The notes beneath the pieces are model-generated. The model was not told where the DNA came from and did no database searches. It saw only the letters and a list, made by a program, of their open reading frames with translations. Shown here piece after piece: positions 26,825 to 51,498 of a DNA stretch of 56,703 bases (position 1 is its first letter; each line of letters opens with the position of its first letter). Source of the stretch: a virus; IMG/VR virus record IMGVR_UViG_3300033141_000963, positions 1-56,703 of that record. The stretch is one strand, 5' to 3'. The translations under genes and the position numbers were made by a program.

Positions 26825-29800
26825 ATGGCAATTAATAATTGTACTCCTCCGAGAATATTTGGACCACCTGCACAAACATTATTTTTAGGTGCAAGCGTAA
26901 AAGATTTTACTCTAACTGCTGGGTGGAACGAGCAGGCTTCAAATCTTACAGTAACTCTTGTTGAAGATACTAGATGTGCAGGAAATAAAGTTTACTGGGA
27001 TGAGAATCTAAATAGACAGTCTGGGGTTATGGTAGATCCGGGTTTTGTTGAACCAGAACCGGGAAGTGCAGTTTATTTCAGAATGGAAGAAGATCCAAGA
27101 GCGGAAGATGCTTCTGATAGGAAAGGTATAGAATATGCTGGTCTTGTTCAAAGTTGGACTAAGGCATATAATAATCAAGGAAATCCAGTATATACTGTCC
27201 AAATTACAGACCCTAGAATCGTATTACAAAATACTCAGGTCGTTGTAAATAATTATGCTGGTGCTACTGCTGGAGTGCCAAACTTATTAAATGCATATGC
27301 TTTCACAGAAGGACAAGTACGAGGTTCAGATATATGTGGTTCTAGTCCAGTTGGAAGGTTTGGTGGTGTTACATTTGATGGTACTCCGGGTTTTCCTGCA
27401 AATGCTAGAGGTATGGCTTGGAATGATATCAAATGTGCCATTCATACACTTACATCATGTCCAAATGCAGCTATAGCTCAGGGGTTTTACGGAAGTTATC
27501 TAAATGGCTCAAGGATAAGGTATATTGAAGGTGCTGATCTTAGTTACGGTACTATTCGTACTAATGATGGATACATGGTTGACTTATCAGATGTGCCATT
27601 TGCACCAACAGACTATAGAATATCCGGCCCCACATTATCTGTTATGGAGCTTGTCACTCAGGTATGTCAAGATGCAGGTTGTGATTTTTATGTAGAATAT
27701 CAGCCAACCAAAAATGGCTCTACTATCTATAATATTATTAAAATTCGCACAGCACAGCGTCAAAACCAACCAGCTATGGGTGCATTGCAAACCTTTATAG
27801 ATCAACAAAGCGGTCTTGCTGAAGAAGCCCAAGGTGGCATTATATCTTGGACTGAGGGTGAAGAAGTAAGAAATGAAGATACTTCTATTTATTTAATTGG
27901 TGGAGAACAAAGATTTGATCTAGAGATCACTAATTTGGGTATGCTCCCATATTGGGGTCTTGACAATGACGGAGCACTAATACAAGCACAGGTTGCCGCT
28001 GGTGAGTATCAAGTAAGGCTAGATGTAAGGAGACTTAACGGATCTCTATACACCTCGTTTGCTACTTCATTTATTTGGGTGTCTGAATCGGAATTGCGTG
28101 CTGCTTTAGGAGATTTTGACGCTTGGAAACACGTAACTCTGGCTAAAGGTCTTGGCGTTGCAACTCATTTTGCAAGTATAAAACAGCAAAAGTTTTTAAG
28201 TGCTGAGAAGATACAGCAGGCAGCAGATGGTGAAATACCTGCTCATGGTTTGGTTATTCCATCAATTGATGCTACATCTAATGATAATGATCCTAACAAT
28301 TCTTCTGCTAAAGATGTAACAAAAATATATGATTTTATTAAGTCGTTTGCTGATGAATTTTATGGAAAACAATTTATAGCTGCTACGGATTTTATATGCT
28401 ACGTTCCAGATACCGATGCGAACAAATTCAAGTATTCTCATGAGCCATCTACAGAAGGCTGCTGGATTGATGGCGGTACAGTAATTGGTCTTGATGTAAC
28501 AAGCTCTGCCGCTGACTTTTTTACCAGTAATGATGGAAGATTCCAACCAATAATTAGATATCCATACTCTGCTGGCTTTACATATGCTGGTGCAGGAGGT
28601 AGTCTTGTTGCCGACCCATCTAATCTTGGTGATAATAATTATATTACTAATGGTACTTACATTTGGCAAAAGGCCGATATTGACACAAGAATAATTTTTG
28701 GAAACCCTCAAGCTCCCGGAAATGGTGTTCCCGGAATGTTGTTAAAGGTCGGTGCTCCTGTTTACAATACAACAAGTAGAGATACTGGCGGAACAGACGG
28801 TGTGGATCAAAACCAAGCCGGTGCTGACTTCCTAGCAGAAGAGACTGGTGGTGCTGGATTAACTGTTCCTAGTTGGAGAGATAGATCCGCATTTTCTCTT
28901 TCAATGGTTGGCAATGCAATATCTCCTGATGCAGCTATGGTTCCTATTTGGAGTCATGTAGATGTATATGGTCCTTGGGGTGTTGCTGGACCACCGGGAC
29001 AAACTAGGGTTGTAAATGACGACAGCTTTGTTCCTTGGGAATTTGGTAGTGCATCATTGATGGCTGCTGCTGCTATAGATAAAGTTAGTAATGCAACGAC
29101 TAGTATGTTAAAGGGTGAGCGTGGAACAGTTCAAATCGCTGGGTTCTTAGGTAGACCTCTTGGTTCTGAGCTTTTAGCTGCTCCGGGAAATAATGATTAT
29201 ATTGAAAGTAGAACGCCATCCTTCACTCAATGTGCTGATGCTGTAGCTTACACATACCTATCAAAACCGGGATGGCAGGGGTCAAATGGACCAAACATAA
29301 CAAATATTAATGTCGGTGTTGGTGCTAACGGTTTTACAACAGAATATCAATTCAGTACATATACTCCAAGATTCGGAAGATTTGATAAAGATAATGCTGA
29401 CAGACTAAAGCAAATAGGTCAACAAAGATTAGCTCAGGCAAGAAACGCTAGAGCGAAACAAGCACTAGCACAACAAATTACTGCCGCTGTTTCAAACATA
29501 AGACAAAGAATCAATGACCAATTAGGTAAAAGTGCAAGAGCACCAAAATCTGCAAGTCATATGTTTATCGGTGGATTTGCTGGGGAAAGAAATGAATCAT
29601 TTACTTTGAACGCAAAAGAGGCTTCACTTACTTTCCCAAATGATGCTAAGTATGCCGAATCCGCCATGATGAGTATAGACGGTTTGATTCGTCCTGTATC
29701 AAAGGCTGGTGATGGATCTTTACCTCGTTTTATTAATTATACTGAATCTACATGCTCTGGTAATGTAAATCAATCAATTGCTCCAGACGGTCCAAAATAT

Positions 29801-32800
29801 ACATACTCTGGAATAAAAGTAAGTCAAGACTTCTTAGACCCACTTTCTAATCCCGGAGAGGGAGTTTCAGTAAGAGATACCGCTGCGTCTGGACATGACA
29901 TTGAAATTCTAGGCAGGAATACATCAGCACCTCCTTCTGGATGGGCAATCGCTGAAGGTGAAGAAGAGGGTTCAACTGGATATGCAGATGATTATAGATT
30001 CTTTGCAATGAGAGGTCCGCTTGTACTCCAAGGTTGGGGTTATGATACAGCAGGAAAACCAGTTCCAAATGCTTCTGATAGTGATGCAAATGCTGAAGCT
30101 GGTACATTTACAACTTCAAGTCTACAAGATGAATTTCTAGCTGGCTTTTTAAAGAAACCAAAAACTTGGCCTGTAGCACCAGTTGATTTGCGTCTTGATA
30201 GAAAACGTGGTGTATGGACTGTTCCACCTCCTCCAAGAAACCTCCATGTCAATGCAACAGGTAGTTGCTTGTCTGAAGATACTATCGCTTCTGTAACCAA
30301 TGCTCAGACTACATATGACGATACTGGCGGCACTGTAGACAATGATATTAAGATAACAGCAAGTCCTTGGGATGTTGAGCTACCAAAAGCAGTTGGTAAA
30401 ATTCCAGTTTATTATGATACAAGTGATTGTAAATACTATCCTTTTCCAGTTAATAGACTAGATATAACTTCTAGTGGCGTAGGTGGCACAGGAACCGCTG
30501 GATACTTTGATAGATTTTCAGATGTTAAGCATATTGTTTTTGCCAGCGGCTTCTCAGGTATTAGCCTGACTAGCGGTTGTGATAATACTGTATATATTCA
30601 TGCGATACAGCAAACTGGGGATACCGTAGAGAATCTTGCTCAATACAAGCAAAACACTAGTCCTTTCTGGCCCGATTCTATAAGTTCCTCCTGTTCAGGT
30701 AACTTGCCAACTACAGTAGACAGTTGTAGTGGTACTGATTGTCTTACAATTGGCAAAGGGCTAACATTATCTGTTGATGGAACCGGTCTTTTACTTGACT
30801 CTTGGCAGTTTATCGAGGATATAGGTTATACATGTAGTGCCGGATCATTTACATCTGGTTCGTTAGGATGTAATCCTTATAATTCATTACAAATTGGGTC
30901 TGGCTTGGTAGTATCAGAAGAGACTGCCGATTCCGTATATACCATTAATAGCCTGATAGACGTTTATGGTCGCACCGTCACAACTTGCGTTAATCCTACT
31001 GGTCCAACTGCCAGAGTTGCAAATGCAGCAGAACACGGGTTAGATTTTGTTGGCTGGTTATCTACTTCAGTTGATTCCTCCACCTGTAGAGTTCGAGTAA
31101 GTGGTGTTGAGCCTACGATACGTGTCTTAAATACACCTACTTGTCCTGCCTCCGAATCGCCAACCGATCTTGGACTAGCAAATTCAATAGTCTTTACAAC
31201 CGGACTGAAAGCCACGATTGATGGTTGTCGTGCAACAGTAACATCTACATTTGGTGTTGAAGGTTTTGATAATAATTGCGACCAAAATGTAAGTACATAC
31301 ACACCGATAACAGGCATCAGTTTTAGCACTGGTTTGAATGTTTGGGACGATGGTTGCGGTAGGGTTAAAGTTGCCTCAACATTGTTTATCTCTGGAAAGC
31401 CAGTATGCAATGAGCTTAGTCCGGGCGTAGGTAGAAATCCATATTATTATAGTAATACTCCTACTGGTCTTGTATTTGGCAAGGGTATAAAAATTGTTGA
31501 AGCTGACTCACCAGTATTCTGTCAGCCGAATATATCTGTTAGTTTACACGTTAGCGGTACTAACTCATATACAAATTTAAAAGAAAAAATAAGCGATTGG
31601 GATGCTCTTATTTTTACAGGTAATTTAAGTGTTGACTCAACTGATGCTTGTACTGTAACAATTAGTGGCGATAATCGGATATCATTCTCTGGTGAAGAAA
31701 ACTGTGGTCAAAGCAAAGTGGCTGATTTTCTCCAAAGAAGATTAATTGCTAGTACAGGCTTGATGATAGAACAACAGGCCGAAGGTGCTGTTATTAGCTC
31801 TAATTTTATCGCCAATGGTTATTCTGACGCATGTATCCAAACTCCATCTGAGGAAATCACAGATGTGCGAATAAGAGAGCTTAGTTTTGGAACTGGTCTT
31901 ATATTCACAACCGGATTATGTAGTGCAACAATTGATTCTCCTTACTTTATCAAAACTACTGGCGATTGTCGGGGAACAAGCTATGAAAGAACCACAACAG
32001 GACTTCGCATCGGTGCAGGTCTAAGGGTAGATGGTATTGGTTGTAATCCTTTGATATCAGCAAATCTGTTTGCTAGTGGTGCGGCTGGTGCGGGTGGTGC
32101 TATACAGAAGATACAGGGGTGGAATAATATCCAAGTCACTGGTGATATTTATGTAGAACAAATAGATGATTGCACTATCCAAATAAGTGGTGCTGCTGGT
32201 GGTGGTGAAGTTGCTGTGACTGGAAGCACTAATGCATGTGTTTGGAGTGCAGATACAACAAATAATTCTATAGAAGGCATTATATTCGGAACCGGACTGT
32301 CAACTACAGTCAGTGGTAATAGTATTCACGTTAATTCACGATTCGGAGTTACTGGAACTCCAGATGGTTGCAGAGGAGAATACTATTCCGACAGAAATAT
32401 AACAGGAATTGAAGTAGGTAGGGGTCTTGCATTATCATCTAACGCCTCATGTAGACCAATATTGAGATCAAATATCTATGCCAGTGGTGCTTCTTCGGCT
32501 GGCGGAGCCGTTGATGTTAAAACAGCAGCATGGGACGCTATTCAGTTTACTGGAAATTTAACAACAACATATAGTGCAAGCGATTGTAAGATAGTTGTAA
32601 GCGGCGTTAATACTTCTAGCATTGCTGTAACCGGCAGCGACGATCCATGCACTGTAAACCAAAATACAAAAAACAATGATATAGCTGGTTTCTTATTCGG
32701 AACTGGCCTTAAAGTCACCGATGATGGTGGTTTGATTAATGTTAATTCTCGATTCTTGGTAGGCGGTGTTAAAGATGGATGTAGAGGAACTGAGGTCAAC

Positions 32801-35800
32801 GCTGCAAATGCTACTGGAATTAATGTTGGTAAAGGTCTTTTATTAACTAATAGTGCTGGTTGTAGTTCACTTATTTCAACTAATCTTGCTATAAGTGGTG
32901 CTTCAACACTTGGTGGTGCAGTCAATAAATACACTGGATGGGATGCTATTCAGGTAACTGGCAGTTTAGTTGTAGAACAAGTTGATTCCTGTACTGTTAG
33001 AATTAGCGGTGTTGATAACTCCTTTCCTATCACGGTAACAGGAAGCACAAACCCATGCACCCTTGGTGCTGACACGGTAGTGCAAGAGACTGCTGGAATT
33101 GTGTTCTCGACAGGACTAAAAACTATAACGTCTGCGGATGGCGTTTCTGTTTCCGCACCATTTTCCGTTTCCGGTGATGGTAGTGCTTGCCGTGGAGAAT
33201 ATTTCGCTCAATCAACTACAACTGGTATAGTAGTTGGTAAAGGCTTGAAGGCAAGTGCAGATGCCTCATGTGCTACTTTAATTGATTTTAATGTAGCTGC
33301 TAGTGGTGGTCCCGGAGATACAAAATTACAAGGCTGGGACGGTATTCAATTTACAGGCAATCTTACTGTTTCATCTATTGACGGTTGTACCATTCGTGTT
33401 AGCGGATCTCAAAGCCCAATTGCTATAACCGGAAGTACGAATCCTTGCACACCAGCAAACGATACTGTTGTCAATTCTGCTGATGGAATAATATTTGGAA
33501 CTGGCCTAAAAACAACACAAGATGCTGATGGCGGTGTCCATGTTAATTCAAAGTTCTACGTTTCGGGCGATGGTGGAGTGTGTGGAGGAACATACGCTGC
33601 TGGGGCACATACGACAGGAATTGTTGTTGGTGCTGGACTAAAGGCAACAAACTCTAGCTGTAGCTCAAATATTGAATTGAATTTCTTGGCATCTCAAGGT
33701 GCTGCTTGTGGTGCTGGGGCTGGTTCTGAATCTGCTATCAGTAAAATGGTTTATGGAACTGGTTTAACATTCACCGCAAATGGATGTACTGGTACACTCC
33801 TATCAAATATTACTGCCAATGGATCTACATATGCTAATCCATGTGATGTTGCAAGCAGATCAGACACTTTTGCTAATAAGCGTTTCCAAAATATTGAGTT
33901 CGCTGGCTACCTCAACTCTGCAATAGACGGTTGTGACGTTGTTGTTAGTGGTGGAAAGTCGCCTATCAATATGGGTCCAGATGGCTCATTATTTGAAGCT
34001 GTTGGATTAGTTGCTGGCAAAAGAATAGATATCACTTCTAGCGGAACATGTACTGGGGTTATTAGTGCAACCTCAATATCTATTACTGGTAGTTCTGATG
34101 AATGTACTGACGCAAGAGATGTAACTGCTAGTGATATTGATGGAATCATATTTGGAACTGGCTTACGAGCAACATCTACTGATGGTGGATTAATTATAGA
34201 CAGTCCATTTGAAGTAGAAGGATTAGGTGTGTGTAGCTCTGCTGCCTATGCCGCATCTCAATCTTCTAAGTTACAATTCGGAAAAGGACTTCTTGTTACC
34301 GAAAATACTGCATGTGAGCAATTAGTACAGTCAAATATTAAAGTATTGGCGACTGGAACTTCTGGCACTTTTGATAATATTGAATTTGTTGGAAATCTAT
34401 CGACAACTTGGGATGGGTGTGGAGTAACAGTAAGCGGTACATCATCTGCATTGATATCAGTTAGCGGTGATAATTCATGTGGCAAAAGTTACTATAATAA
34501 TGGAAGTGTTACTGGATTGATGTTCAGTACTGGTCTTGCTGTTTCAGAAGATGGTGCTGGCAATGCTGTTATTTCAAGCACGATCAGGGCACAGGGTGGT
34601 GCTATTACTGATGAGTGTGCAGTTCCGCCAACCAGAGATGCTGCATTTGATAGCTTATTCACTAACCTTATCTTTACTGGATATTTAAGTTCATCAACTG
34701 ATGGATGTGATGTAACAATCGAAGGTAAGAGAAGTCCTATAACTATCTCAAAGAGTGGAACATTCTGTGGTACGGAAGTAAGCGAGAGCGGAAATATCAC
34801 TAATCTTAGTATTGGTAGTGGTCTAGCCTTAACAGGTGTTGCAGGTTGCTCCGCTACTTTATTAACAGATATGAAGATTAGTCAGGCCGAAACTTGTAAT
34901 AGAAGTGCTGTACCAGAAGCCTTGTTCACAAACCTAGAGTTTAAAACTGGTCTTGCAATTACCCAAAAGGCTGGTTCATCGTGTACTTGGGAAATCAGTA
35001 ATGTATTTAATGTTGAGGGTAATAATGACTGCGGCTATGGAGGTGGAACAACTTCTGTAAATGGTGTTGAGAAAATAGTATTCTCATCAGGCTTGGCAAT
35101 TCAGGATGATGGAAATTGTCAAGTAACTGTTACTTCTAAAAAGCTAGTCGGTGGAGGCGGAAGCAATGGATGTTTAGGCGGAACCGCTTCTCCTGTTCCG
35201 TTTGACACACTATTATTCTCTGGACTTAGTGTTTCAACAGACGGATGTACCACAACAATTGGTGGTCCAACACTAACTGTTGCACACAATGGTTCTTGTA
35301 ACTCAAGCACACTGGCTACATCTTGCTTTAATAATCTTATATTCTCTACGGGTATTAAGATTGAAGGAAGCAACGGAACCTACGAAGTTGCAGGTGGAAT
35401 CGAATTCCTTAAAACAGGGTGTGGTGCTCCTTCAAATATCAATAATTATAGCAACTTTGCAAATGTGATAGTCGGAGAAGGTCTTAATGCACGAGATGTT
35501 GGCTTATGTACTGTAAAAATTGATGCCGGTCTATCTGGTATTAGAAGTGGTAGTCAAATTCGCGGCCAGCAAGTCAACTGTGGAACACCAAGTGCGGTTC
35601 CTCCGGGGACTTGTAGTACTGATTGCTTGGCTGCTGGGTATGAAGGTCCATTTGACGATAGAAGCATACCTTTGGCTGTTAATGGTCTTTATTCTGGTCC
35701 GGGTATTGGATTTGCTTCATGTGAAGGCGATTGTGATCTTATTATATTCCAAAATAGTGCTGTATCTGGACTTAACAATACCTGTGGTGGCGAGCTTGGT

Positions 35801-36130
35801 CTTCAGGTTTACTCAACATACTTCTCAAATGCATTTACAATCAACGGAAATAAAGGTGTTGACCTAACAACCAATACCCCTGTTGATGGTGCAACATTCA
35901 GTCATGGTGTTAATGTATTCATGAATGAGGGCGGTGGAGCTTGGAATTGCAGTCTTGTTACTGGAGTTGAGTTTGAACAAACCAAAGTCGATGGATATGT
36001 GACAAATGTAACTGTAACACCATTATTCGGAGTCCTTGGTGGTTCAAGCACATGTGATCCGGGTGATGCGACATCTAAAGATCTGCCGGGAGAGTCCAAA
36101 AAATTCTGGGTAACAACTATTCCATGCTAA
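26825..36130 (+). CDS. Giant tail-tip / central fibre protein, 3,101 aa
   Basis: Residues 1-about 1,000 look like a tail-tip hub: a beta start (GPPAQTLFLGASVKDFTLTA), then EYAGLVQSWTKAY and VYTVQITDPRIVLQNTQV. ISGPTLSVMELVTQVCQDAG and a helical coiled segment near 870-900 (ARAKQALAQQITAAVSNIR) follow. From about 1,308 to 2,890 the protein is a string of short beta units. One type is (I/V/F)-x-(F/V)-(G/S)-x-G-(L/I), about 25 copies. A second is a (F/V)-(T/V/A)-G-x-L...C-x-(V/I)-x-(I/V)-S-G unit, about nine copies. Four to five long units of about 130-137 residues are clearly tandem (32213, 32624, 33032, 33422). Regular cysteines recur in each unit. The last 190 residues are unique and may carry receptor contact. 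It is the last large gene of the late arm, as expected for a receptor-binding central fibre. Confidence 0.6.
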   Translation: MAINNCTPPRIFGPPAQTLFLGASVKDFTLTAGWNEQASNLTVTLVEDTRCAGNKVYWDENLNRQSGVMVDPGFVEPEPGSAVYFRMEEDPRAEDASDRKGIEYAGLVQSWTKAYNNQGNPVYTVQITDPRIVLQNTQVVVNNYAGATAGVPNLLNAYAFTEGQVRGSDICGSSPVGRFGGVTFDGTPGFPANARGMAWNDIKCAIHTLTSCPNAAIAQGFYGSYLNGSRIRYIEGADLSYGTIRTNDGYMVDLSDVPFAPTDYRISGPTLSVMELVTQVCQDAGCDFYVEYQPTKNGSTIYNIIKIRTAQRQNQPAMGALQTFIDQQSGLAEEAQGGIISWTEGEEVRNEDTSIYLIGGEQRFDLEITNLGMLPYWGLDNDGALIQAQVAAGEYQVRLDVRRLNGSLYTSFATSFIWVSESELRAALGDFDAWKHVTLAKGLGVATHFASIKQQKFLSAEKIQQAADGEIPAHGLVIPSIDATSNDNDPNNSSAKDVTKIYDFIKSFADEFYGKQFIAATDFICYVPDTDANKFKYSHEPSTEGCWIDGGTVIGLDVTSSAADFFTSNDGRFQPIIRYPYSAGFTYAGAGGSLVADPSNLGDNNYITNGTYIWQKADIDTRIIFGNPQAPGNGVPGMLLKVGAPVYNTTSRDTGGTDGVDQNQAGADFLAEETGGAGLTVPSWRDRSAFSLSMVGNAISPDAAMVPIWSHVDVYGPWGVAGPPGQTRVVNDDSFVPWEFGSASLMAAAAIDKVSNATTSMLKGERGTVQIAGFLGRPLGSELLAAPGNNDYIESRTPSFTQCADAVAYTYLSKPGWQGSNGPNITNINVGVGANGFTTEYQFSTYTPRFGRFDKDNADRLKQIGQQRLAQARNARAKQALAQQITAAVSNIRQRINDQLGKSARAPKSASHMFIGGFAGERNESFTLNAKEASLTFPNDAKYAESAMMSIDGLIRPVSKAGDGSLPRFINYTESTCSGNVNQSIAPDGPKYTYSGIKVSQDFLDPLSNPGEGVSVRDTAASGHDIEILGRNTSAPPSGWAIAEGEEEGSTGYADDYRFFAMRGPLVLQGWGYDTAGKPVPNASDSDANAEAGTFTTSSLQDEFLAGFLKKPKTWPVAPVDLRLDRKRGVWTVPPPPRNLHVNATGSCLSEDTIASVTNAQTTYDDTGGTVDNDIKITASPWDVELPKAVGKIPVYYDTSDCKYYPFPVNRLDITSSGVGGTGTAGYFDRFSDVKHIVFASGFSGISLTSGCDNTVYIHAIQQTGDTVENLAQYKQNTSPFWPDSISSSCSGNLPTTVDSCSGTDCLTIGKGLTLSVDGTGLLLDSWQFIEDIGYTCSAGSFTSGSLGCNPYNSLQIGSGLVVSEETADSVYTINSLIDVYGRTVTTCVNPTGPTARVANAAEHGLDFVGWLSTSVDSSTCRVRVSGVEPTIRVLNTPTCPASESPTDLGLANSIVFTTGLKATIDGCRATVTSTFGVEGFDNNCDQNVSTYTPITGISFSTGLNVWDDGCGRVKVASTLFISGKPVCNELSPGVGRNPYYYSNTPTGLVFGKGIKIVEADSPVFCQPNISVSLHVSGTNSYTNLKEKISDWDALIFTGNLSVDSTDACTVTISGDNRISFSGEENCGQSKVADFLQRRLIASTGLMIEQQAEGAVISSNFIANGYSDACIQTPSEEITDVRIRELSFGTGLIFTTGLCSATIDSPYFIKTTGDCRGTSYERTTTGLRIGAGLRVDGIGCNPLISANLFASGAAGAGGAIQKIQGWNNIQVTGDIYVEQIDDCTIQISGAAGGGEVAVTGSTNACVWSADTTNNSIEGIIFGTGLSTTVSGNSIHVNSRFGVTGTPDGCRGEYYSDRNITGIEVGRGLALSSNASCRPILRSNIYASGASSAGGAVDVKTAAWDAIQFTGNLTTTYSASDCKIVVSGVNTSSIAVTGSDDPCTVNQNTKNNDIAGFLFGTGLKVTDDGGLINVNSRFLVGGVKDGCRGTEVNAANATGINVGKGLLLTNSAGCSSLISTNLAISGASTLGGAVNKYTGWDAIQVTGSLVVEQVDSCTVRISGVDNSFPITVTGSTNPCTLGADTVVQETAGIVFSTGLKTITSADGVSVSAPFSVSGDGSACRGEYFAQSTTTGIVVGKGLKASADASCATLIDFNVAASGGPGDTKLQGWDGIQFTGNLTVSSIDGCTIRVSGSQSPIAITGSTNPCTPANDTVVNSADGIIFGTGLKTTQDADGGVHVNSKFYVSGDGGVCGGTYAAGAHTTGIVVGAGLKATNSSCSSNIELNFLASQGAACGAGAGSESAISKMVYGTGLTFTANGCTGTLLSNITANGSTYANPCDVASRSDTFANKRFQNIEFAGYLNSAIDGCDVVVSGGKSPINMGPDGSLFEAVGLVAGKRIDITSSGTCTGVISATSISITGSSDECTDARDVTASDIDGIIFGTGLRATSTDGGLIIDSPFEVEGLGVCSSAAYAASQSSKLQFGKGLLVTENTACEQLVQSNIKVLATGTSGTFDNIEFVGNLSTTWDGCGVTVSGTSSALISVSGDNSCGKSYYNNGSVTGLMFSTGLAVSEDGAGNAVISSTIRAQGGAITDECAVPPTRDAAFDSLFTNLIFTGYLSSSTDGCDVTIEGKRSPITISKSGTFCGTEVSESGNITNLSIGSGLALTGVAGCSATLLTDMKISQAETCNRSAVPEALFTNLEFKTGLAITQKAGSSCTWEISNVFNVEGNNDCGYGGGTTSVNGVEKIVFSSGLAIQDDGNCQVTVTSKKLVGGGGSNGCLGGTASPVPFDTLLFSGLSVSTDGCTTTIGGPTLTVAHNGSCNSSTLATSCFNNLIFSTGIKIEGSNGTYEVAGGIEFLKTGCGAPSNINNYSNFANVIVGEGLNARDVGLCTVKIDAGLSGIRSGSQIRGQQVNCGTPSAVPPGTCSTDCLAAGYEGPFDDRSIPLAVNGLYSGPGIGFASCEGDCDLIIFQNSAVSGLNNTCGGELGLQVYSTYFSNAFTINGNKGVDLTTNTPVDGATFSHGVNVFMNEGGGAWNCSLVTGVEFEQTKVDGYVTNVTVTPLFGVLGGSSTCDPGDATSKDLPGESKKFWVTTIPC
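30750..35490 (+). repeat. Coding repeat array in the central fibre gene
   Basis: About 25 copies of a G-x-G-L/I-type unit and nine copies of a (F/V)TG-x-L...C...SG unit alternate through this stretch. The most regular part starts at 32213, with equivalent (A/T)-(V/I)-T-G-S codons at 32213, 32624, 33032 and 33422, that is spacings of 411, 408 and 390 bp. A further related long unit lies near 34080. The repeats are diverged at DNA level. Confidence 0.8.
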
Positions 36131-43911: not shown

Positions 43912-45545
43912 TTCTTAACTCTCCTATTTGCTTCCATAATAAAAGCTGGGCCTGTTGTTTTATTGACTCTTTGACTGTCGAAGAAATGCCTTTGTTGTGC
44001 CATTCCAAGAACTTGCTCAAATGCTTTTTTCTGGTCAAATGGTGAAAGATCAACACCAAAGTTAGCACCATAGTTTAAATTTCTCAACATATTTAACATG
44101 TCATATTCGTAAAGTTTGCTTTGGTCTTGAATTACACTTCCGTAGATCCACTCGCAGAATTGAAGGTTGTTAAGACCTTGTGGGATTTCCGTTGGGACTG
44201 GCCTTATAGTTGGTGGCGTATCCCATTTTCCTTGCAGCGGTTTTGTAACCTGAACATTGTCGAAGTAATTCATCCAAGCGTTTGCTGCTATATCCCAAGT
44301 ATACCTTGTAATACATCCTTTCCTTGACTCAAGACGCTTCTTTTTTGCTTGAGCTTCTGTTTGAGTAGCACATTTCAGCATAATGTCTGTTAGTGCCGCA
44401 TTGTTTGGGCCAGATCTATCTGCATTGGTTTCCATTTCTCTAGCCAATTGTGGCTTGATGGGGTATCCATTACAGTGTTTGACGACATCTTCCATAGCAC
44501 TATAATCAATACATGCGATTGGCGTTCCTGCTGCCGCTGCTTCAACCTGTGGCATACCAAAGCCTTCACAAATAGCATATTGAACGTACAAATCCATTAG
44601 ATTGTAAATGTCATTAAGCTCAGAGTGTTCAATACCATTCTGAACTCCCGGCATAGTAGCAGCATGAGATCCACAATGTTCACAAACAGTGATTGCATCC
44701 CTATATCTGGAAACAAAGTGCTTCTTGCAGTTTCTACAAACATATGTAACAAGAAGTTTTGTTCCAAATTCATGGGCTAATGAAGTAATGTTCCATCCCA
44801 TTTTCTCTGGATAGCTTGTATGCAAATATAAAAGAGATCTATCTGCAACATCTTTCGGTGCTTTCTTTAAAAAATCAGAAAAGGAACGCATTAGATCTGG
44901 GAACATTTTACGCTTTTGGTTACGCATAACAGTTCCAACAATAAAGCTGTCTGGATCAAGACCAAACTTTTCTTTGTGTGCTTTCTTATTCGGAATAATA
45001 TTAAATTCAGATGGATCAATGGCAGGAGAAGCACAATCACTTACTTTAAGCCTTCCATGAGTTTGCTCTTCTAAAGTCCTAATTCCATATTCAGAATATG
45101 CCATCAGACCATCACATTTATTAAACCAGTATAGCCATTCGTTTTTCTGAGGCTCACTGTCTACTGTTGGCATCCATACCCAATGAAAGAATGGCAGTAA
45201 CGAAGAATTTGCCACATACGCATCCATCCAAGGATCTCGATATGTAACAACAATGTCTGGCTTGAACTCTAAAACTGCAAATTCAAATCTAGTACATCCC
45301 CATTGGACATTTGGGTTTTCTGTATGTTGCTTTGCATAGTCCTTTTCATTATCCAGTGGTGCATTTCCATAGATTACCCAGTCCGTATTCTCAAAATCAG
45401 TAGAACTAGCATAACATGCGAACTCAGCAATTTCATATTTGCCAGACTTATGTATTCTGGTTAGAATCTCTTTTGCATATGTGCCAAACCCAGAAGCTAG
45501 TTTATGAGATTCAGTTACAAACAATATACGTTTCTTATTTTGCAT
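43908..45545 (-). CDS. GT4-family glycosyltransferase with inserted zinc ribbon
   Basis: This 545-aa protein has the GT-B/GT4 layout. The N-terminal acceptor domain opens with RILFVTESHKLASGFGTYAK. The C-terminal donor domain holds CEGFGMPQVEAAAAGTP (about 326-342), the E-x7-E glycosyltransferase group 1 motif. Between them residues 270-291 form a rubredoxin-like zinc ribbon (Cys270-x2-Cys273, Cys288-x2-Cys291) not usual in GT4 enzymes. A C-terminal extension of about 120 residues follows. The first gene after the sigma factor, it overlaps that gene by 11 nt. It is the most certain glycosyltransferase here; donor sugar and acceptor (virion protein, DNA base or host glycan) are unknown. Confidence 0.8.
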   Translation of the reverse strand: MQNKKRILFVTESHKLASGFGTYAKEILTRIHKSGKYEIAEFACYASSTDFENTDWVIYGNAPLDNEKDYAKQHTENPNVQWGCTRFEFAVLEFKPDIVVTYRDPWMDAYVANSSLLPFFHWVWMPTVDSEPQKNEWLYWFNKCDGLMAYSEYGIRTLEEQTHGRLKVSDCASPAIDPSEFNIIPNKKAHKEKFGLDPDSFIVGTVMRNQKRKMFPDLMRSFSDFLKKAPKDVADRSLLYLHTSYPEKMGWNITSLAHEFGTKLLVTYVCRNCKKHFVSRYRDAITVCEHCGSHAATMPGVQNGIEHSELNDIYNLMDLYVQYAICEGFGMPQVEAAAAGTPIACIDYSAMEDVVKHCNGYPIKPQLAREMETNADRSGPNNAALTDIMLKCATQTEAQAKKKRLESRKGCITRYTWDIAANAWMNYFDNVQVTKPLQGKWDTPPTIRPVPTEIPQGLNNLQFCEWIYGSVIQDQSKLYEYDMLNMLRNLNYGANFGVDLSPFDQKKAFEQVLGMAQQRHFFDSQRVNKTTGPAFIMEANRRVKK

Positions 45546-45978
45546 TTGCTTCTCTTAATCTTTTAACGAGTTTATAGAATTTATTTTTGACTTTAGACGG
45601 TGTTTCATTAACTATGTCACAAATTTCATGGAATTTATAACCATGCTGTCTAAGTTCTAATAGAGTTTTTTCTTCATCGGTCATGTCGTCCAGATAACAT
45701 TCCCAAATCTTATCTGTTGTTTCAGTTGTTGGAGAAGCAATACTGTCTATATTTACAAAACTCTTTCTGTTTTTAATCTCTCTTATGATAGACCACCTGA
45801 TAGGTCGCCAAGCATATGTAGAAATTAGACCGTTGCTTTTGTCGTATTTTTTCAATGCCTTCCAAAGACCAATTCTTCCGGCATCCATCAAGTCTTCACG
45901 CTCTGTATGATTTTTTGGGCCAAATGAGTTTACTATAGAAACTACTAGCCCCATGTTTTGTTCAATCAGTTCGTCCAT
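45535..45978 (-). CDS. Phage sigma-70-like factor (late sigma candidate)
   Basis: This 147-aa protein has a sigma region 2 (residues about 8-68): NMGLVVSIVNSFG, then REDLMDAGRIGLWKALKKYD and ISTYAWRPIRWSIIREI, which binds core RNA polymerase and the -10 region. A short region 4-like helix-turn-helix (about 100-145, KFHEICDIVNETPSKVKNKF) follows. The size and lack of regions 1 and 3 resemble the T4 late factor gp55, though sequence identity to it was not tested. An exact TATAAATA site upstream of late virion genes fits this role. It has its own ribosome binding site (AAGGA) and overlaps the glycosyltransferase start. It would direct host RNA polymerase to late promoters. Confidence 0.75.
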   Translation of the reverse strand: MDELIEQNMGLVVSIVNSFGPKNHTEREDLMDAGRIGLWKALKKYDKSNGLISTYAWRPIRWSIIREIKNRKSFVNIDSIASPTTETTDKIWECYLDDMTDEEKTLLELRQHGYKFHEICDIVNETPSKVKNKFYKLVKRLREANAK

Positions 45979-45990
45979 ACTATATCCTTA

Positions 45991-47625
45991 TTATATACAT
46001 TGTTCTAGAGTTTGTGCTTTTTTTACTAAAAAACTTCCTCTTTTTTTATCTCTTTCGCCCCTCAACAATAATATCTTGCCTACGACAATTTTACTCTTGA
46101 GTTTTGACCAATCATCAGAAAAAACAGTGATGTTATCAAGAGAGCAAGTACCGTCTGATACTTTCAAGAAAGCCATTTTCTCACCCTTATGCTGACCACC
46201 TCTGATTTTCCACTCTCGGACATCGCTTATTTGTGCTGCAATAGCAATATAGTTGTTATCAAACCCCTTAATATATTCTCGACAGGTGCAATTTGCATTT
46301 GATGTATCATACTCATCCACTTCTGAACAAGTAATTTCAACTCCAAGCAAATCTCTCTCCTGCTTTGCTCGCCAAGACCACCTATCAATCAATTCATATG
46401 GAGGGTTTTTCAAAGCTGCAATTGACCCATTAACCTGCTCTAAATGCCTTTCTCTATGTACTGTGGCCTTTTTAGACTGTTTGATATGGGGAATTGTTTT
46501 CTCAAGTCCTTCTAAGAATGTCTTTGCTTCAACCTTGGTCAGATAATCTTTATCAGAATCTTTTAATTCTTTATAAATGTTATATTGATACAGCATTTCG
46601 TTTCTTTGTCTTCCATAACAATCAAAAACTCCTGCCCTAATCATAGCATCGAATGAGTTAGACTTAATATATCGTCCAACCTTCATCAAGAACTCATCCC
46701 ATGACATTGCAGCTACATTATAATTGTTTTCATTTACGACACCCTCAATTTGCTTGAAAACACTGACACCAACGCTTTTGACATTCACAAGACCGAAGGT
46801 AGGCAATTTATCAACTAAGCAAAAGTTTTCGTTCATATTAGCGATACTAGGAGGATTAGTATCAATATCCATAGTTCTTGCGTTGTTCACAAGATCATTG
46901 ATCTCTTCAAACGGTTTTGGTTTACCATCTGCATGACGAAGGTATGAAGTAAAGAAGGCTCTAGGAAAGTGAGCTTTGGCATATGCGGTCTGATATCCGT
47001 TTAGTGCATAGCTTACAGAGTGAGACTTATTGAAAGAATACTTCTGAGACTTCTCGATCCAACTAAAAATCTCTTCGGCATCTTTCTCAGTAAAGTTTCC
47101 TTGACTAACAGCACCCTCTAGGAACTCTTTCTTTACTTTAGCCATAAGCTCAACATTCTTTTTACCAATAGCTTTACGAAGATTGTCAGCTTGACCTAGA
47201 GAGAAATTAGCAACCAATTGTGCAATCTGCATAGCTTGTTCCTGATAAACAAGAATCCCTTGGGTTGATTCTAGAATAGGCTTTAGTCTGGGGTCAAAGT
47301 ATTTAACCTCATCTTTACCAGCTTTACGATCAATATAGTGCTGGGTCAGAGACTTACCATCAACAATAGCATCACCACAACCCGGACGAATAATAGCAAT
47401 AAGGTCAGAAAGTTCTTCCACAGTTCTAGGTTTAACTTCTCTTGCCTTGCTTTGCCCAAGCTGAGATTCTAGCTGGAAAACACCTTTAGTATTTCCCTCA
47501 CATATCATGTCCCATGTTCTATCACACTCTAGGGGTAGTGCTTCAATATTCGGGTTGAATACTGGCAAACCCTTAGAGTTTTTTTCAAATTTACAACCGC
47601 ATGGGAACTCGATAAAATCACTCAT
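45991..47625 (-). CDS. dnaE: DNA polymerase III alpha, C-terminal part (fingers to OB)
   Basis: This 544-aa protein carries the second half of a bacterial-type replicative polymerase. The fingers open with TWDMICEGNTKGVFQLESQL and VEELSDLIAIIRPG, then LVYQEQAMQIAQLVANFSLG, RKAIGKKNVELMAKVKKEF and YSFNKSHSVSYALNGYQTAY. The helix-hairpin-helix/beta-binding-like region (SFDAMIRAGVFDCYGRQRNE) and a C-terminal OB fold (IAAQISDVREWKIRG, MAFLKVSDGTCSLDNITVFS) follow. No classical QxxLF clamp motif was seen. None of the three catalytic aspartates is here; they lie in the separate 629-aa ORF. It begins MSDFIEFPCGCKF with its own GGAGATG ribosome binding site. It must pair with the N-terminal part to make an active enzyme. 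Confidence 0.9.
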   Translation of the reverse strand: MSDFIEFPCGCKFEKNSKGLPVFNPNIEALPLECDRTWDMICEGNTKGVFQLESQLGQSKAREVKPRTVEELSDLIAIIRPGCGDAIVDGKSLTQHYIDRKAGKDEVKYFDPRLKPILESTQGILVYQEQAMQIAQLVANFSLGQADNLRKAIGKKNVELMAKVKKEFLEGAVSQGNFTEKDAEEIFSWIEKSQKYSFNKSHSVSYALNGYQTAYAKAHFPRAFFTSYLRHADGKPKPFEEINDLVNNARTMDIDTNPPSIANMNENFCLVDKLPTFGLVNVKSVGVSVFKQIEGVVNENNYNVAAMSWDEFLMKVGRYIKSNSFDAMIRAGVFDCYGRQRNEMLYQYNIYKELKDSDKDYLTKVEAKTFLEGLEKTIPHIKQSKKATVHRERHLEQVNGSIAALKNPPYELIDRWSWRAKQERDLLGVEITCSEVDEYDTSNANCTCREYIKGFDNNYIAIAAQISDVREWKIRGGQHKGEKMAFLKVSDGTCSLDNITVFSDDWSKLKSKIVVGKILLLRGERDKKRGSFLVKKAQTLEQCI

Positions 47626-47635
47626 TGCATCTCCA

Positions 47636-48325
47636 TTAGATATCTACGTTTTCAAAACTTCCTTTGAACTTCGAGATAGACGATTGTTTTCTATGAAACT
47701 TCATGAATCTAGTAATAATTGCTGCTTCTTCAAAAACATCAACTAGTGCATCATGAGCAACACCCAATGCTTTCATTCCAAAGAATTTACGCCAAGTGTC
47801 CATCTTAAAGTCGTATGGCTCTTCGAGATTCTCAAACCACCAGAACAGATTATCCATAGCATCTAACTTAGTTACCGAGGAAAACGGCATCTTAACTTTA
47901 TGCTTCTTGCACAAACGCTCTGCAATCGGAATATCAAACCCTGTAATATTATACCCTGCTGGAATCGGTTCTGGGAACCATTGTCCGGGTTTTTTGTCCA
48001 CAGTAAACTTTTTACAGTAGGTTGCAAAGTTTTTCCAAGCAACTTTCTCGGAAACACCCTGCTTCCATCTTTCGATTACTTCTTCGTATGTAATTCCATA
48101 GTTTTGGGCGTGCCAATTAATAGTACCTTCTCTCTTTGGAACTTCAAAGTATTCTGGCTTATCAATACCGTCTGGCTTAATCATAGTATTAAATGCCTGA
48201 TCTTTTTTGACCTCAAGAGTCTCTGGGTCAATAGGAACAGCAGCAAGCTGAACCGGATTACACAGATCCTTATCTGGCAAGTCAGTCTCAAAGTCAAAGC
48301 AAATAATCCATCTATTATTCTTCAT
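47636..48325 (-). CDS. DnaQ-like 3'-5' proofreading exonuclease
   Basis: This 229-aa protein has all DEDDh motifs: Asp11 and Glu13 in CFDFETD, Asp131 in ITGFDIPI, and His191/Asp196 in VAHDALVDV. It corresponds to the epsilon proofreading subunit of DNA polymerase III. It is encoded between the two parts of the alpha subunit, starts 11 nt inside the 70-aa gene and ends 10 nt before the C-terminal alpha gene. It would remove misincorporated 3' ends during phage DNA synthesis. A fused or separate C-terminal alpha-binding segment is possible but not recognisable. Confidence 0.88.
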   Translation of the reverse strand: MKNNRWIICFDFETDLPDKDLCNPVQLAAVPIDPETLEVKKDQAFNTMIKPDGIDKPEYFEVPKREGTINWHAQNYGITYEEVIERWKQGVSEKVAWKNFATYCKKFTVDKKPGQWFPEPIPAGYNITGFDIPIAERLCKKHKVKMPFSSVTKLDAMDNLFWWFENLEEPYDFKMDTWRKFFGMKALGVAHDALVDVFEEAAIITRFMKFHRKQSSISKFKGSFENVDI

Positions 48326-48527
48326 CTACTTTCTCCACATAGAGCTTTTCAAAACACATAGATCCATTTTTAACTTGAATATGCTTTTCTGTTTCTCCTT
48401 TTTCATTGCCAAGCATTACATCAAAAGACTCGCACATTTTTGACCAAGACTTTCCATCAATAATTACTTTTTTAACAAAAGGATATTTTTGAGAAAGAGA
48501 AATCATATCTCTTCTAAATTCTAACAT
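48315..48527 (-). CDS. Small protein inside the polymerase gene block, unknown
   Basis: This 70-aa protein (MLEFRRDMISLSQKYPFVKK... ending YVEKVDEE) is mixed alpha/beta with no known motif. Its ATG (48525-48527) overlaps the last seven bases of the N-terminal polymerase part, and GGAGGTGA inside that gene is its ribosome binding site. It is placed between the two polymerase parts and before the exonuclease. It may be a small adaptor of the polymerase complex, but this is only positional. Confidence 0.5.
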   Translation of the reverse strand: MLEFRRDMISLSQKYPFVKKVIIDGKSWSKMCESFDVMLGNEKGETEKHIQVKNGSMCFEKLYVEKVDEE

Positions 48528-50410
48528 AGGTCTTCACCTCCAACGATGTTTACAACGTCCATAACTTTGTCTAGTCCTCTAATAGCCAAACAGTCTAATT
48601 TCAATAGTCCAGAGTCTTCACAACTCGGCCCATCGAATCCAGCACGATAGCTTTTACCCTTGCTATCTAGAACCATTGGACATGATTCACTGATTGGTTT
48701 ACTTGATACAACAATACCAGCGGCATGTGTACCTGAAATAATTTTAGTATGCTCGATTCGGATTGCTTGTTCAAATATTTTTGCAAGCCTTCCTTCAAGC
48801 TGTCCATCCTTTCCAAGATGACACCATTCTTTTAGTTTCTCAGGGGTATTTTCTAAAGCCCAAAGAATACTAGATGAATAGCCATATTCTTCTTCAATAT
48901 CTTTTAGTTCGTCAGAAACCTTTGCTTCGTCTTGAAGACACTTAGTAATCGCCTTTTGCTCATCAAACGATATATTTCCGCGAGCAGACATTACTCTTGT
49001 AAGAGATGCCTTACCCTTGAGCGTCTGGAATGTTTGGATTTGTGCAACACACTCCTCTCCGTACTTTCCTTTGATGTATTCAATAGTCTCTTCTCTTGCT
49101 GCCTTTGGAATATCAAAGTCAATATCAGGCCAAGAGATTTTCCCCGGTGCATTACGACCCGCATTATAAAATCTCTCAAAGATAAGATTGAATGGGATAG
49201 GATCTACCTGAGTAATTCCCAAAAGATTAGACACCATACACCCAGCAGCGGAACCACGCCCCGGCCCAGTAATGTATCCTCTGGACCTAACAAAGCGGAG
49301 AATATCATCGACAATAAGAAAATAGCTAGAAAGGCCAATCGAGGTAAAAACTTCCAATTCATTATTCACCCTTTCACCGTATTTAGCAAATTCATCGCTG
49401 TTCTTGTCAACGTGACCCATTTTCCTTTGCCATCCATCACGGTTCAGTTTCCTGAGATACTCTTCTGGAGTCATACCGTTTGGGCATTTAAATTCTGGTG
49501 GCTCTGGGGATTTAAGGATATTATAATCTTCGCACATATCCAAAATCAAGTTGGTGTTCGCAAGCTCCTCATCAGTATGAAACTGCTTCATATCTTCATA
49601 AGAAGGAATATGATAATTGTTTGACTGAAAGAATGTAATCAAAGACCTGTTAGCAACACCCTGTTTAAGCTCTCTCTGGATCTGTGAGATGTTCTTTTTA
49701 AAGTATGTGCATAGAAGCACTCTCTGATCTTCTGCGTCCTCTCTCTCACAATAGTGAGCGTCTGGAGTCGCAACACATGGAGCACCAACTACTTTAGCAA
49801 TTTGCCTAAGAGCATTTCCTACCATTCCAGCAAACTTATTAATCTTAGAATCAATTAGCTGAATTTCAACAAAGAAGTTTTCTTTTCCAAACATAGTTTG
49901 AAGATTCTTTGCCATATGAACACCCTTCTTCATCCAGTCTGGATCAAGACGTTCTCCATCTGTGATAGCGTCAGCAAGTACAGAACCAAGATGTCCGCTA
50001 AAGCAAATTAGATTTCCTCTGTCGGCAGCTTGAGCCAACATATCCATATCAATTCTTGGCTTGTGGTAAAAGTTTTCTTTCTTATTAGATAAAGAAATTA
50101 CCCTTAGTAGGTCTTTCCACCCATTAAGATTCTTTGCGATGATTGGCTGATGAACTAATCTTTTGTTCTCTTTTTTCCTTACTGTCGCATCATCATCTGG
50201 GCAAATGTAAAGTTCGCTACCAAGAAGAGGTCTTAGTCCAGCAGATTTCATCTCTCTTGAGAAATCAACAGCACCGCTAACCGACCCATGATCTGTCAAT
50301 GCACATGCAGATGCACCAATTTTCTGGATACGCTCTGCAATATCATCACATTTGCTTAGACCGTCTAGTAGACTATATTCTGAGTGAACGTGTAACGGCG
50401 TGTATTTCAT
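48521..50410 (-). CDS. dnaE: DNA polymerase III alpha, N-terminal part (PHP and palm)
   Basis: This 629-aa protein opens with the PHP domain (LHVHSEYSLLDGL, with His8 and His10; LTDHGSVSG; VATPDAHYCERED). The palm follows with GPGRGSAAGCMVSNLLGITQ near residue 385. Two catalytic aspartates lie in WPDIDFDIPKA (about 425-430) and the third in LLKLDCLAIRG (about 605). It stops 24 residues later, just where an intact DnaE would enter the fingers. No intein or intron sequence is present at the break. The stop is embedded in the ribosome binding site and start of the 70-aa gene. It should assemble with the 544-aa C-terminal part. The start TAATG overlaps the RecB-like nuclease stop. Confidence 0.9.
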   Translation of the reverse strand: MKYTPLHVHSEYSLLDGLSKCDDIAERIQKIGASACALTDHGSVSGAVDFSREMKSAGLRPLLGSELYICPDDDATVRKKENKRLVHQPIIAKNLNGWKDLLRVISLSNKKENFYHKPRIDMDMLAQAADRGNLICFSGHLGSVLADAITDGERLDPDWMKKGVHMAKNLQTMFGKENFFVEIQLIDSKINKFAGMVGNALRQIAKVVGAPCVATPDAHYCEREDAEDQRVLLCTYFKKNISQIQRELKQGVANRSLITFFQSNNYHIPSYEDMKQFHTDEELANTNLILDMCEDYNILKSPEPPEFKCPNGMTPEEYLRKLNRDGWQRKMGHVDKNSDEFAKYGERVNNELEVFTSIGLSSYFLIVDDILRFVRSRGYITGPGRGSAAGCMVSNLLGITQVDPIPFNLIFERFYNAGRNAPGKISWPDIDFDIPKAAREETIEYIKGKYGEECVAQIQTFQTLKGKASLTRVMSARGNISFDEQKAITKCLQDEAKVSDELKDIEEEYGYSSSILWALENTPEKLKEWCHLGKDGQLEGRLAKIFEQAIRIEHTKIISGTHAAGIVVSSKPISESCPMVLDSKGKSYRAGFDGPSCEDSGLLKLDCLAIRGLDKVMDVVNIVGGEDLC

Positions 50411-51498
50411 TAATCTTGAACCTTTCCTCCTCCAGAACCATACTTGCCTACAGTATATCCGGGAGCCATGTAGTGTTTAGTAACCCAGTCAATTCCTTTG
50501 AGCTTAATCATGTATCTGACTTGCTCACACTTACTCATTGTTTCACCATACTTCGTTCTCTGTCCGGGTCTATGTTCCTTTAGAGGTTCAATGTTAGTCC
50601 CTTCAAAAGTTGTCTTTCCAGCATGGCACATCGTTCGACACTTCCAGCAATCCTTTGGTCTGATTCTTGGAAGTATCTGTGGCTCATCCGTATCCCTGAT
50701 TTCCTCAAATCTTTTTCTCAGAATTTCTTCTGTTTGTTTCATGTCGGAATCTTGATAGTGGACAGTAAATGGACCACCAGTGTTGATGAAGTAGATTGTC
50801 ATTAGGAATGTGTGAGCTTCTGGATATAGCCTTTTACAAGCATAGTGGTACATTCGCAACTGCGGATTATTGAATAAATTATTCTGATTATATTCTTTAC
50901 CAGATGCCCAGTCTTTTCTCATTCCTGTTTTCCAGTCTACAACCTCATAGACACCATCACCGAGATCACTAACTAAGTCAATAGTCCCTTTTAGTGCTAA
51001 GTGTCCAGATAAATTATACTCTGGATATTCGTACTTTGCCCAATCTTCTTCGATCTCAAAGTCAAAATGAGGTTCCGCATCAACAACATCTCGCTGTCTC
51101 GGATCATACATGCCATCCTTATACTTTAGAGCTTTCCATGCCCAGCTTAGACAATCCTCAAAGTCTCTATCCCTCCAAGCGTTTTTGCCGGTATGGTAGT
51201 TGAAGAGTTGGGTGTAATGCTCGTATACCCTAGCACCGATTGAGTTTAGATATTCCGGCTCATAATTATCAGTAAAAACTTCTCCAATATCTTCGTCATC
51301 AATTACAGCTTTGCCTTCTTGTGCTGCCTTTTTGCATAGTGCTGTAATTTCTAGAATTTTATGAGTAATAGTGCCCTTGTCAGCTTTTTTACCACCAAGT
51401 CCACGCAAACCAAGCGTATATTCGGTATAGAACTGCATGGGACAAGTCCTATGAGTATTAAAGGAACTACTTCTGAAATATACGATTGGGATACCCAT
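50410..51498 (-). CDS. RecB/Cas4-like PD-(D/E)XK nuclease with Fe-S cluster motif
   Basis: This 362-aa protein has the RecB-type nuclease motifs: His46 (TITHKILE), Asp174 (KGTIDLV), Asp188 and Lys190 (EVVDWKTG), and the Q-L-x-x-Y helix (NPQLRMYHYACK). Cys19 near the N-terminus, with Cys284-x2-Cys287-x3-Cys291, matches the four-cysteine [4Fe-4S] arrangement of Cas4/AddB nucleases. It would trim DNA ends for recombination with the RecA-like protein. It lies immediately before the polymerase gene (TAATG overlap). Gene order is consistent with a recombination-replication role rather than CRISPR; no array is present. Confidence 0.8.
   Translation of the reverse strand: MGIPIVYFRSSSFNTHRTCPMQFYTEYTLGLRGLGGKKADKGTITHKILEITALCKKAAQEGKAVIDDEDIGEVFTDNYEPEYLNSIGARVYEHYTQLFNYHTGKNAWRDRDFEDCLSWAWKALKYKDGMYDPRQRDVVDAEPHFDFEIEEDWAKYEYPEYNLSGHLALKGTIDLVSDLGDGVYEVVDWKTGMRKDWASGKEYNQNNLFNNPQLRMYHYACKRLYPEAHTFLMTIYFINTGGPFTVHYQDSDMKQTEEILRKRFEEIRDTDEPQILPRIRPKDCWKCRTMCHAGKTTFEGTNIEPLKEHRPGQRTKYGETMSKCEQVRYMIKLKGIDWVTKHYMAPGYTVGKYGSGGGKVQD

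What the first reader, a model, noticed from the sequence alone, without database searches (positions are those of the whole stretch)
45991..50410. DNA polymerase III alpha broken into two ORFs around an exonuclease and a 70-aa gene
The 629-aa ORF has the PHP domain and all three catalytic aspartates and stops 24 residues after the third one. The 544-aa ORF resumes with the fingers and runs to the OB fold. Nothing of the conserved chain seems lost: the break falls in the linker between the last palm strand and the fingers. Between the parts lie a small gene and a complete DnaQ-like proofreading exonuclease, each with its own start and ribosome binding site. No intein or intron motif is visible. 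This differs from the cyanobacterial split DnaE, which is rejoined by a split intein at a more C-terminal site (established). The phage may use a polymerase held together by non-covalent assembly, with the exonuclease and small protein as possible partners.
Basis: partly seen in the sequence, partly recalled or inferred. Interest (0 to 1): 0.8.

Follow-up and report, generated by a model that had tools for sequence, protein, structure and literature searches.

The report
Phage replicase split into two proteins
A large group of uncultivated phages makes its only recognisable DNA-copying enzyme as two separate proteins, cut at the same domain boundary in every member found and most likely assembled without being spliced, which shows that a bacterial-type replicative polymerase can live stably as two pieces.

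Summary
The minus strand of the window encodes DNA polymerase III alpha (DnaE) as a 629-aa part (PHP, palm, thumb, all three catalytic Asp) and a 544-aa part (fingers, HhH, OB), with a 70-aa gene and a DEDDh exonuclease gene between them. The arrangement is not damage. All 179 related loci in this phage clade (61 clusters at 90% identity, down to about 41% identity) have the same break, 18-27 residues after the third Asp in 60 of 61 clusters, with the exonuclease between the halves in 61 of 61. Both halves are under strong purifying selection (dN/dS about 0.045). Twenty-five relatives of 65-224 kb have no PolA or PolB and exactly one PolIII fingers domain. No intein or intron was found. Best explanation: a two-subunit, non-covalently assembled PolIII alpha. 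The 70-aa protein is probably not an essential partner (absent or replaced elsewhere); the exonuclease may be. The fingers half usually begins with a CxC...C head that no readable fused DnaE linker shows. Split polymerases are known (T4-like and archaeal PolB, a minimal jumbo-phage PolIII), so this is a new variant. Assembly itself has not been shown.

The parts
48521..50410 (-). PolIII alpha, N part (629 aa): PHP domain, palm with D431, D433, D606, thumb; last helix 611-624 then stop
   Evidence: Pfam PHP 6e-34 and DNA_pol3_alpha 1.2e-60; AF2 pLDDT 89.0, pTM 0.89; Foldseek best hit Taq PolIII alpha 2hpi
48315..48527 (-). 70-aa gene of unknown function; overlaps the end of the N part and the start of the exonuclease gene
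   Evidence: ORF with TTGGAGG upstream; homologues in the window subclade only
47636..48325 (-). DnaQ-like DEDDh 3'-5' exonuclease (229 aa), D11 E13 D131 H191 D196
   Evidence: PHROG 192 'DNA polymerase exonuclease subunit' 9e-11; invariant DEDDh residues; profile matches exonuclease chains in PDB
45991..47625 (-). PolIII alpha, C part (544 aa): fingers, HhH, OB fold
   Evidence: Pfam DNA_pol3_finger 1.9e-45, HHH_6 5.6e-6, tRNA_anti-codon (OB) 3.7e-5, just below its cut-off; AF2 pLDDT 90.1, pTM 0.82; Foldseek hits PolIII alpha 7pu7, 4iqj, 2hpi
47524..47625 (-). CxC...C head of the C part (C9-G-C11 ... C34), typical of the split clade
   Evidence: Alignment A1: C34 invariant, C9 and C11 at least 90%; not seen in the palm-finger linkers printed for fused DnaE
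50410..51498 (-). neighbour: PD-(D/E)XK (Cas4/RecB-like) nuclease; its end overlaps the start of the N part by 1 base
   Evidence: PDDEXK_1 5e-20; present upstream of the N part in most relatives
45535..45978 (-). neighbour: sigma-70-like factor, downstream of the C part
   Evidence: Sigma70_r2 4e-11; downstream of the C part across the window subclade

Best explanation
The phage replicase alpha subunit is a two-chain enzyme. One chain carries PHP, palm and thumb with the whole metal-binding triad; the other carries fingers, HhH and OB. The chains are translated separately from one gene cluster, each from its own start, and assemble non-covalently into one active polymerase. The exonuclease encoded between them supplies proofreading and may help hold the complex. 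The fission happened once in the ancestor of this phage clade and has been kept. Shown: the gene anatomy, conservation, purifying selection, absence of another PolA or PolB in relatives, absence of intein or intron signatures. Inferred: physical assembly, activity, the role of the exonuclease, docking by the CxC head.
For: 179 of 179 clade loci are split (61 clusters at 90% identity); the N part ends 18-27 residues after the third Asp in 60 of 61 and the exonuclease lies between in 61 of 61. 76 of 80 bacterial-genome loci are fused; two of the three split ones are contigs of this phage clade and the third looks like a single in-frame stop. The sampled split loci plus L118 form one clade. dN/dS about 0.045 in both halves against L003 (dS near saturation, so approximate). 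In 25 relatives of 65-224 kb there is no PolA and no PolB and exactly one PolIII fingers domain, in an open frame of 532-583 aa. Each half gives a confident AlphaFold2 model that matches PolIII alpha; in the N part the weak stretch is residues about 381-430, the active-site loops that would face the fingers. No Rfam intron, no intein domain in either half, and only short, unconserved tails at the break.
Against: No structure prediction of the complex, no protein or RNA data. IMG/VR contigs may be incomplete, so a second polymerase cannot be ruled out genome by genome. Co-occurrence of adjacent genes does not prove binding.
Confidence: 0.85

Rival explanations
1. The halves are rejoined covalently, by a very short or unrecognised split intein or by trans-splicing of RNA.
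For: Split inteins rejoin cyanobacterial DnaE (established). This clade does carry an intein-like insert in a neighbouring gene and a LAGLIDADG gene inside the N part in the L035 group.
Against: The N part ends within 27 residues of the third Asp in 60 of 61 clusters with unconserved tails; the head before the fingers motif has no intein motif. No Rfam intron in the window or the region. A complete exonuclease gene fills the gap, with overlaps of a few bases and no room for an intron.
Confidence: 0.04
2. The halves are remains of a broken gene and the host replicase, or another polymerase, does the work.
For: The gene is in two pieces; frameshifted dnaE fragments occur in databases (PMC3919608).
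Against: Same break in 61 clusters, dN/dS about 0.045, all catalytic residues invariant, no other PolA, PolB or second PolIII in 25 relatives.
Confidence: 0.02
3. The halves work as two separate proteins, for example the N part as a PHP nuclease or regulator and the C part as a DNA-binding accessory, and do not form a polymerase.
For: Each half folds well on its own in prediction.
Against: The N part keeps the metal triad and the C part keeps the fingers core in all relatives; neither is useful for DNA synthesis alone, and the phages encode no other PolA or PolB detected here.
Confidence: 0.06
4. Refinement, not exclusive with the best explanation: the exonuclease (and not direct palm-finger contacts alone) is the bridge that makes the two chains one enzyme.
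For: Its gene lies between the halves in 61 of 61 clusters. In known Pol III the exonuclease binds the PHP domain (established).
Against: In L118, a deep split relative, RNase HII lies there instead; phiT1 has only a 49-aa gene there. Gene position is not contact.
Confidence: 0.2

Closest known systems
Bacterial DNA polymerase III alpha, DnaE type (e.g. Taq 2hpi, E. coli 2hnh/5fkv)
   Same: Same domains in the same order, same catalytic residues; best sequence and fold match of both parts
   Different: One chain in bacteria and in the fused phage enzymes sampled; two chains here, cut between palm and fingers
Minimal split PolIII alpha of group 2.2 jumbo phages (Iyer et al. 2021, PMC7824862)
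   Same: A phage PolIII alpha in two proteins, proposed to reconstitute one enzyme
   Different: There: core only, without the other PolIII domains, genes far apart, N unit NTP-binding and C unit metal plus template binding, alongside a PolB. Here: full length with PHP, HhH and OB, adjacent genes, metal triad wholly in the N part, and no PolB
Cyanobacterial split dnaE
   Same: DnaE encoded by two genes
   Different: No intein here
Rossellomorea phage phiT1 gp20/gp19/gp18 (PV767480)
   Same: Cultured phage with PolIII alpha cut at the same palm-finger junction, with a small gene between
   Different: Only about 30% identical, no exonuclease gene between, no CxC head; its closest cultured relative found (Moorella phage MTATph1, 36%) is fused, which suggests a separate event, although one origin is not rejected (p-AU 0.425)
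Split family B polymerases (Aeromonas T4-like phages gp43A/gp43B; Methanothermobacter PolB)
   Same: Replicative polymerase working as two chains
   Different: Unrelated polymerase family; recalled from general knowledge, no source found in the held library

Membership tests
C-family polymerase, DnaE type | PHP, palm, thumb, fingers, HhH, OB in this order | tested here: met
   Pfam and PDB profile matches, over two genes; the OB hit is just below the Pfam cut-off but the E. coli alignment covers it
C-family polymerase, DnaE type | three catalytic Asp in the palm | tested here: met
   D431, D433, D606 invariant in 29 sequences
C-family polymerase, DnaE type | polymerase activity | not testable with these tools
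   needs purified proteins
Split-intein DnaE | intein halves at the break | tested here: not met
   no intein domain, short unconserved tails
Split-intein DnaE | ligated product | not testable with these tools
   needs proteomics
Minimal split PolIII of jumbo phages | lacks PHP, HhH and OB domains | tested here: not met
   all present
Minimal split PolIII of jumbo phages | accompanied by PolB, genes far apart | tested here: not met
   no PolB in 25 relatives; genes adjacent
DnaQ / epsilon exonuclease superfamily | DEDDh catalytic residues | tested here: met
   D11, E13, D131, H191, D196 invariant in 12 sequences
DnaQ / epsilon exonuclease superfamily | binds PolIII alpha PHP domain | not testable with these tools
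   no complex prediction available

The most novel reading that the evidence does not exclude
The CxC...C head of the fingers chain is a metal-binding docking module that arose with the fission and replaces the lost peptide link between palm and fingers, so these phages run an obligate two-subunit Pol III alpha whose assembly can be regulated or exchanged.
Probability: 0.25. Interest if true: 0.75.

Novelty: new variant of a known kind. Interest (0 to 1): 0.6.

Why it matters
The palm-finger connection is at the heart of every Pol III alpha. A whole phage clade that has lived with that connection cut, apparently as its only DNA polymerase, gives a natural, testable system for how much of a replicase needs covalent linkage. 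It is also a lead for split replicases as tools and a warning for annotation, since these genes are easily read as fragments.

Tried and rejected
Nucleotide search against cultured phages: no match, so no close cultured relative. Intron by Rfam: none in the window or region, none in L035. The 70-aa gene as conserved partner: rejected. Beta clamp in the phages: no PF02767 match in 18; the gp45 clamp search is uninformative because no control rang. AU tests on the large tree did not finish; a 27-row set did. Literature: no description of an intein-free palm-finger split of PolIII alpha in the held library; Kazlauskas & Venclovas 2011 and Dassa 2009 are not held. One call failed on a stop codon.

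Full report
What is there. Four minus-strand genes overlap or nearly touch: N part 48521-50410, 70-aa gene 48315-48527, exonuclease 47636-48325, C part 45991-47625, with Shine-Dalgarno-like sequences before each start. The N part has PHP and DNA_pol3_alpha domains, the C part DNA_pol3_finger, HHH_6 and a weak OB hit. They lie in a replication block with DnaB-like helicase, Toprim primase, dNMP kinase, PD-(D/E)XK nuclease and a sigma-like factor. The record is a 56,703-base IMG/VR virus contig.

Where the break lies. Profiles of 29 N parts and 30 C parts align to solved PolIII alpha up to Taq residue 627 and from Taq 641 (E. coli 584) respectively. In the predicted N model the last helix is 611-624 and the residues after it are weak. 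The break is therefore in the loop after the helix that follows the third palm Asp, before the fingers. In the fused DnaE whose linker could be read, 51-60 residues separate the third Asp motif from the fingers FQxE motif, and none of the printed linkers has a CxC (several sequences escaped the pattern). In the split clade most C parts begin with an extra F-x-CxC-x-F ... C segment: 51 of 61 clusters by a narrow pattern, about 55 when CNC and CAC are read by eye; L067, L076, L252, L264, L273 and L274 lack it. L118 has a CTC ... C version.

How conserved. Scans of IMG/VR with the C part, the N part and a distant C part, plus two phage contigs in genome bins, gave 179 loci of the main clade with both parts identifiable; the scans overlap, so the independent count is 61 clusters at 90% identity. 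All are split; the exonuclease lies between in 61 of 61; the N part ends 18-27 residues after the third Asp in 60 of 61. In the genome collection 76 of 80 loci are fused, two split ones are phage contigs and L140 looks like one in-frame stop. Two loci hold only one part (L029/L222). Among other phages sampled, 37 of 37 relatives of a gut-phage DnaE keep palm and fingers in one ORF.

History. In the tree the main split clade is together at SH-aLRT 100, L118 is its sister at 94, or 97 in a smaller set. phiT1 falls among fused enzymes, and its nearest cultured relative found is fused, which points to a second, independent break at the same junction, but a single origin is not rejected (p-AU 0.425).

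Is it used. dN/dS against L003 is about 0.047 for the N part and 0.044 for the C part; dS is near saturation, so these are rough, but pN is 0.06-0.09 against pS 0.64-0.72. Twenty-five related contigs of 65-224 kb have no PolA and no PolB, with positive controls ringing, and exactly one PolIII fingers domain. They may be incomplete, so this is strong only in aggregate.

How it works. The most likely mechanism is non-covalent assembly of two chains. AlphaFold2 gives confident separate models (pLDDT 89.0 and 90.1) whose best solved matches are PolIII alpha. The stretch of lower confidence in the N part, about residues 381-430, is the nucleotide-binding and active-site loop region that in whole enzymes faces the fingers; this is an inference. 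A complex could not be predicted with the tools at hand. No beta clamp was found in 18 relatives, so the host clamp may be used; also inference.

The partners. The exonuclease has the complete DEDDh set and matches exonuclease chains. The 70-aa gene has homologues only near the window; the other branch has an unrelated ~60-aa VSCCK family in the same place and some lineages have nothing. It is not needed for the split enzyme in general.

Known relatives of the idea. Iyer et al. 2021 (PMC7824862) described a minimal PolIII alpha split in two in group 2.2 jumbo phages, with a different division of the catalytic parts, distant genes and a PolB. PHROG families that match only part of these proteins suggest other break points in phage PolIII (PHP only, before DxD, mid-fingers), but among the PHROGs matched none starts or ends at the palm-finger junction. 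So the kind is known and the variant is new to the sources I could search.

Noticed in passing
L035:3414-4262 and the same contig group (L036, L037, L038, L040, L041, L044): The N part is broken a second time just before the catalytic DxD by an ORF with a LAGLIDADG_3 domain, giving a three-piece polymerase gene; no Rfam intron was found there.
   Followed up: partly
L035:135-2126: The neighbouring PD-(D/E)XK gene carries an in-frame insert of about 315 aa with a LAGLIDADG_3 domain and intein-like ends.
   Followed up: partly
L118:1569-6030: Deep split relative with RNase HII and a zinc-ribbon protein between the halves instead of the exonuclease.
   Followed up: partly
L294, L295, L310, L315; L119:1831-6057; L110:3926-7384: Other break points in phage PolIII alpha: PHP separate from palm-fingers, PHP / exonuclease / polymerase in three ORFs, and a break at the DxD in Bacillus phage Jayan.
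   Followed up: partly
L296, L297, L298, L308: Fused phage DnaE with about 280-340 extra residues inside the fingers domain, possibly inteins.
   Followed up: no
window 15212-25087 and 26825-36130: Two very large ORFs of 3291 and 3101 aa on the plus strand, not identified.
   Followed up: no
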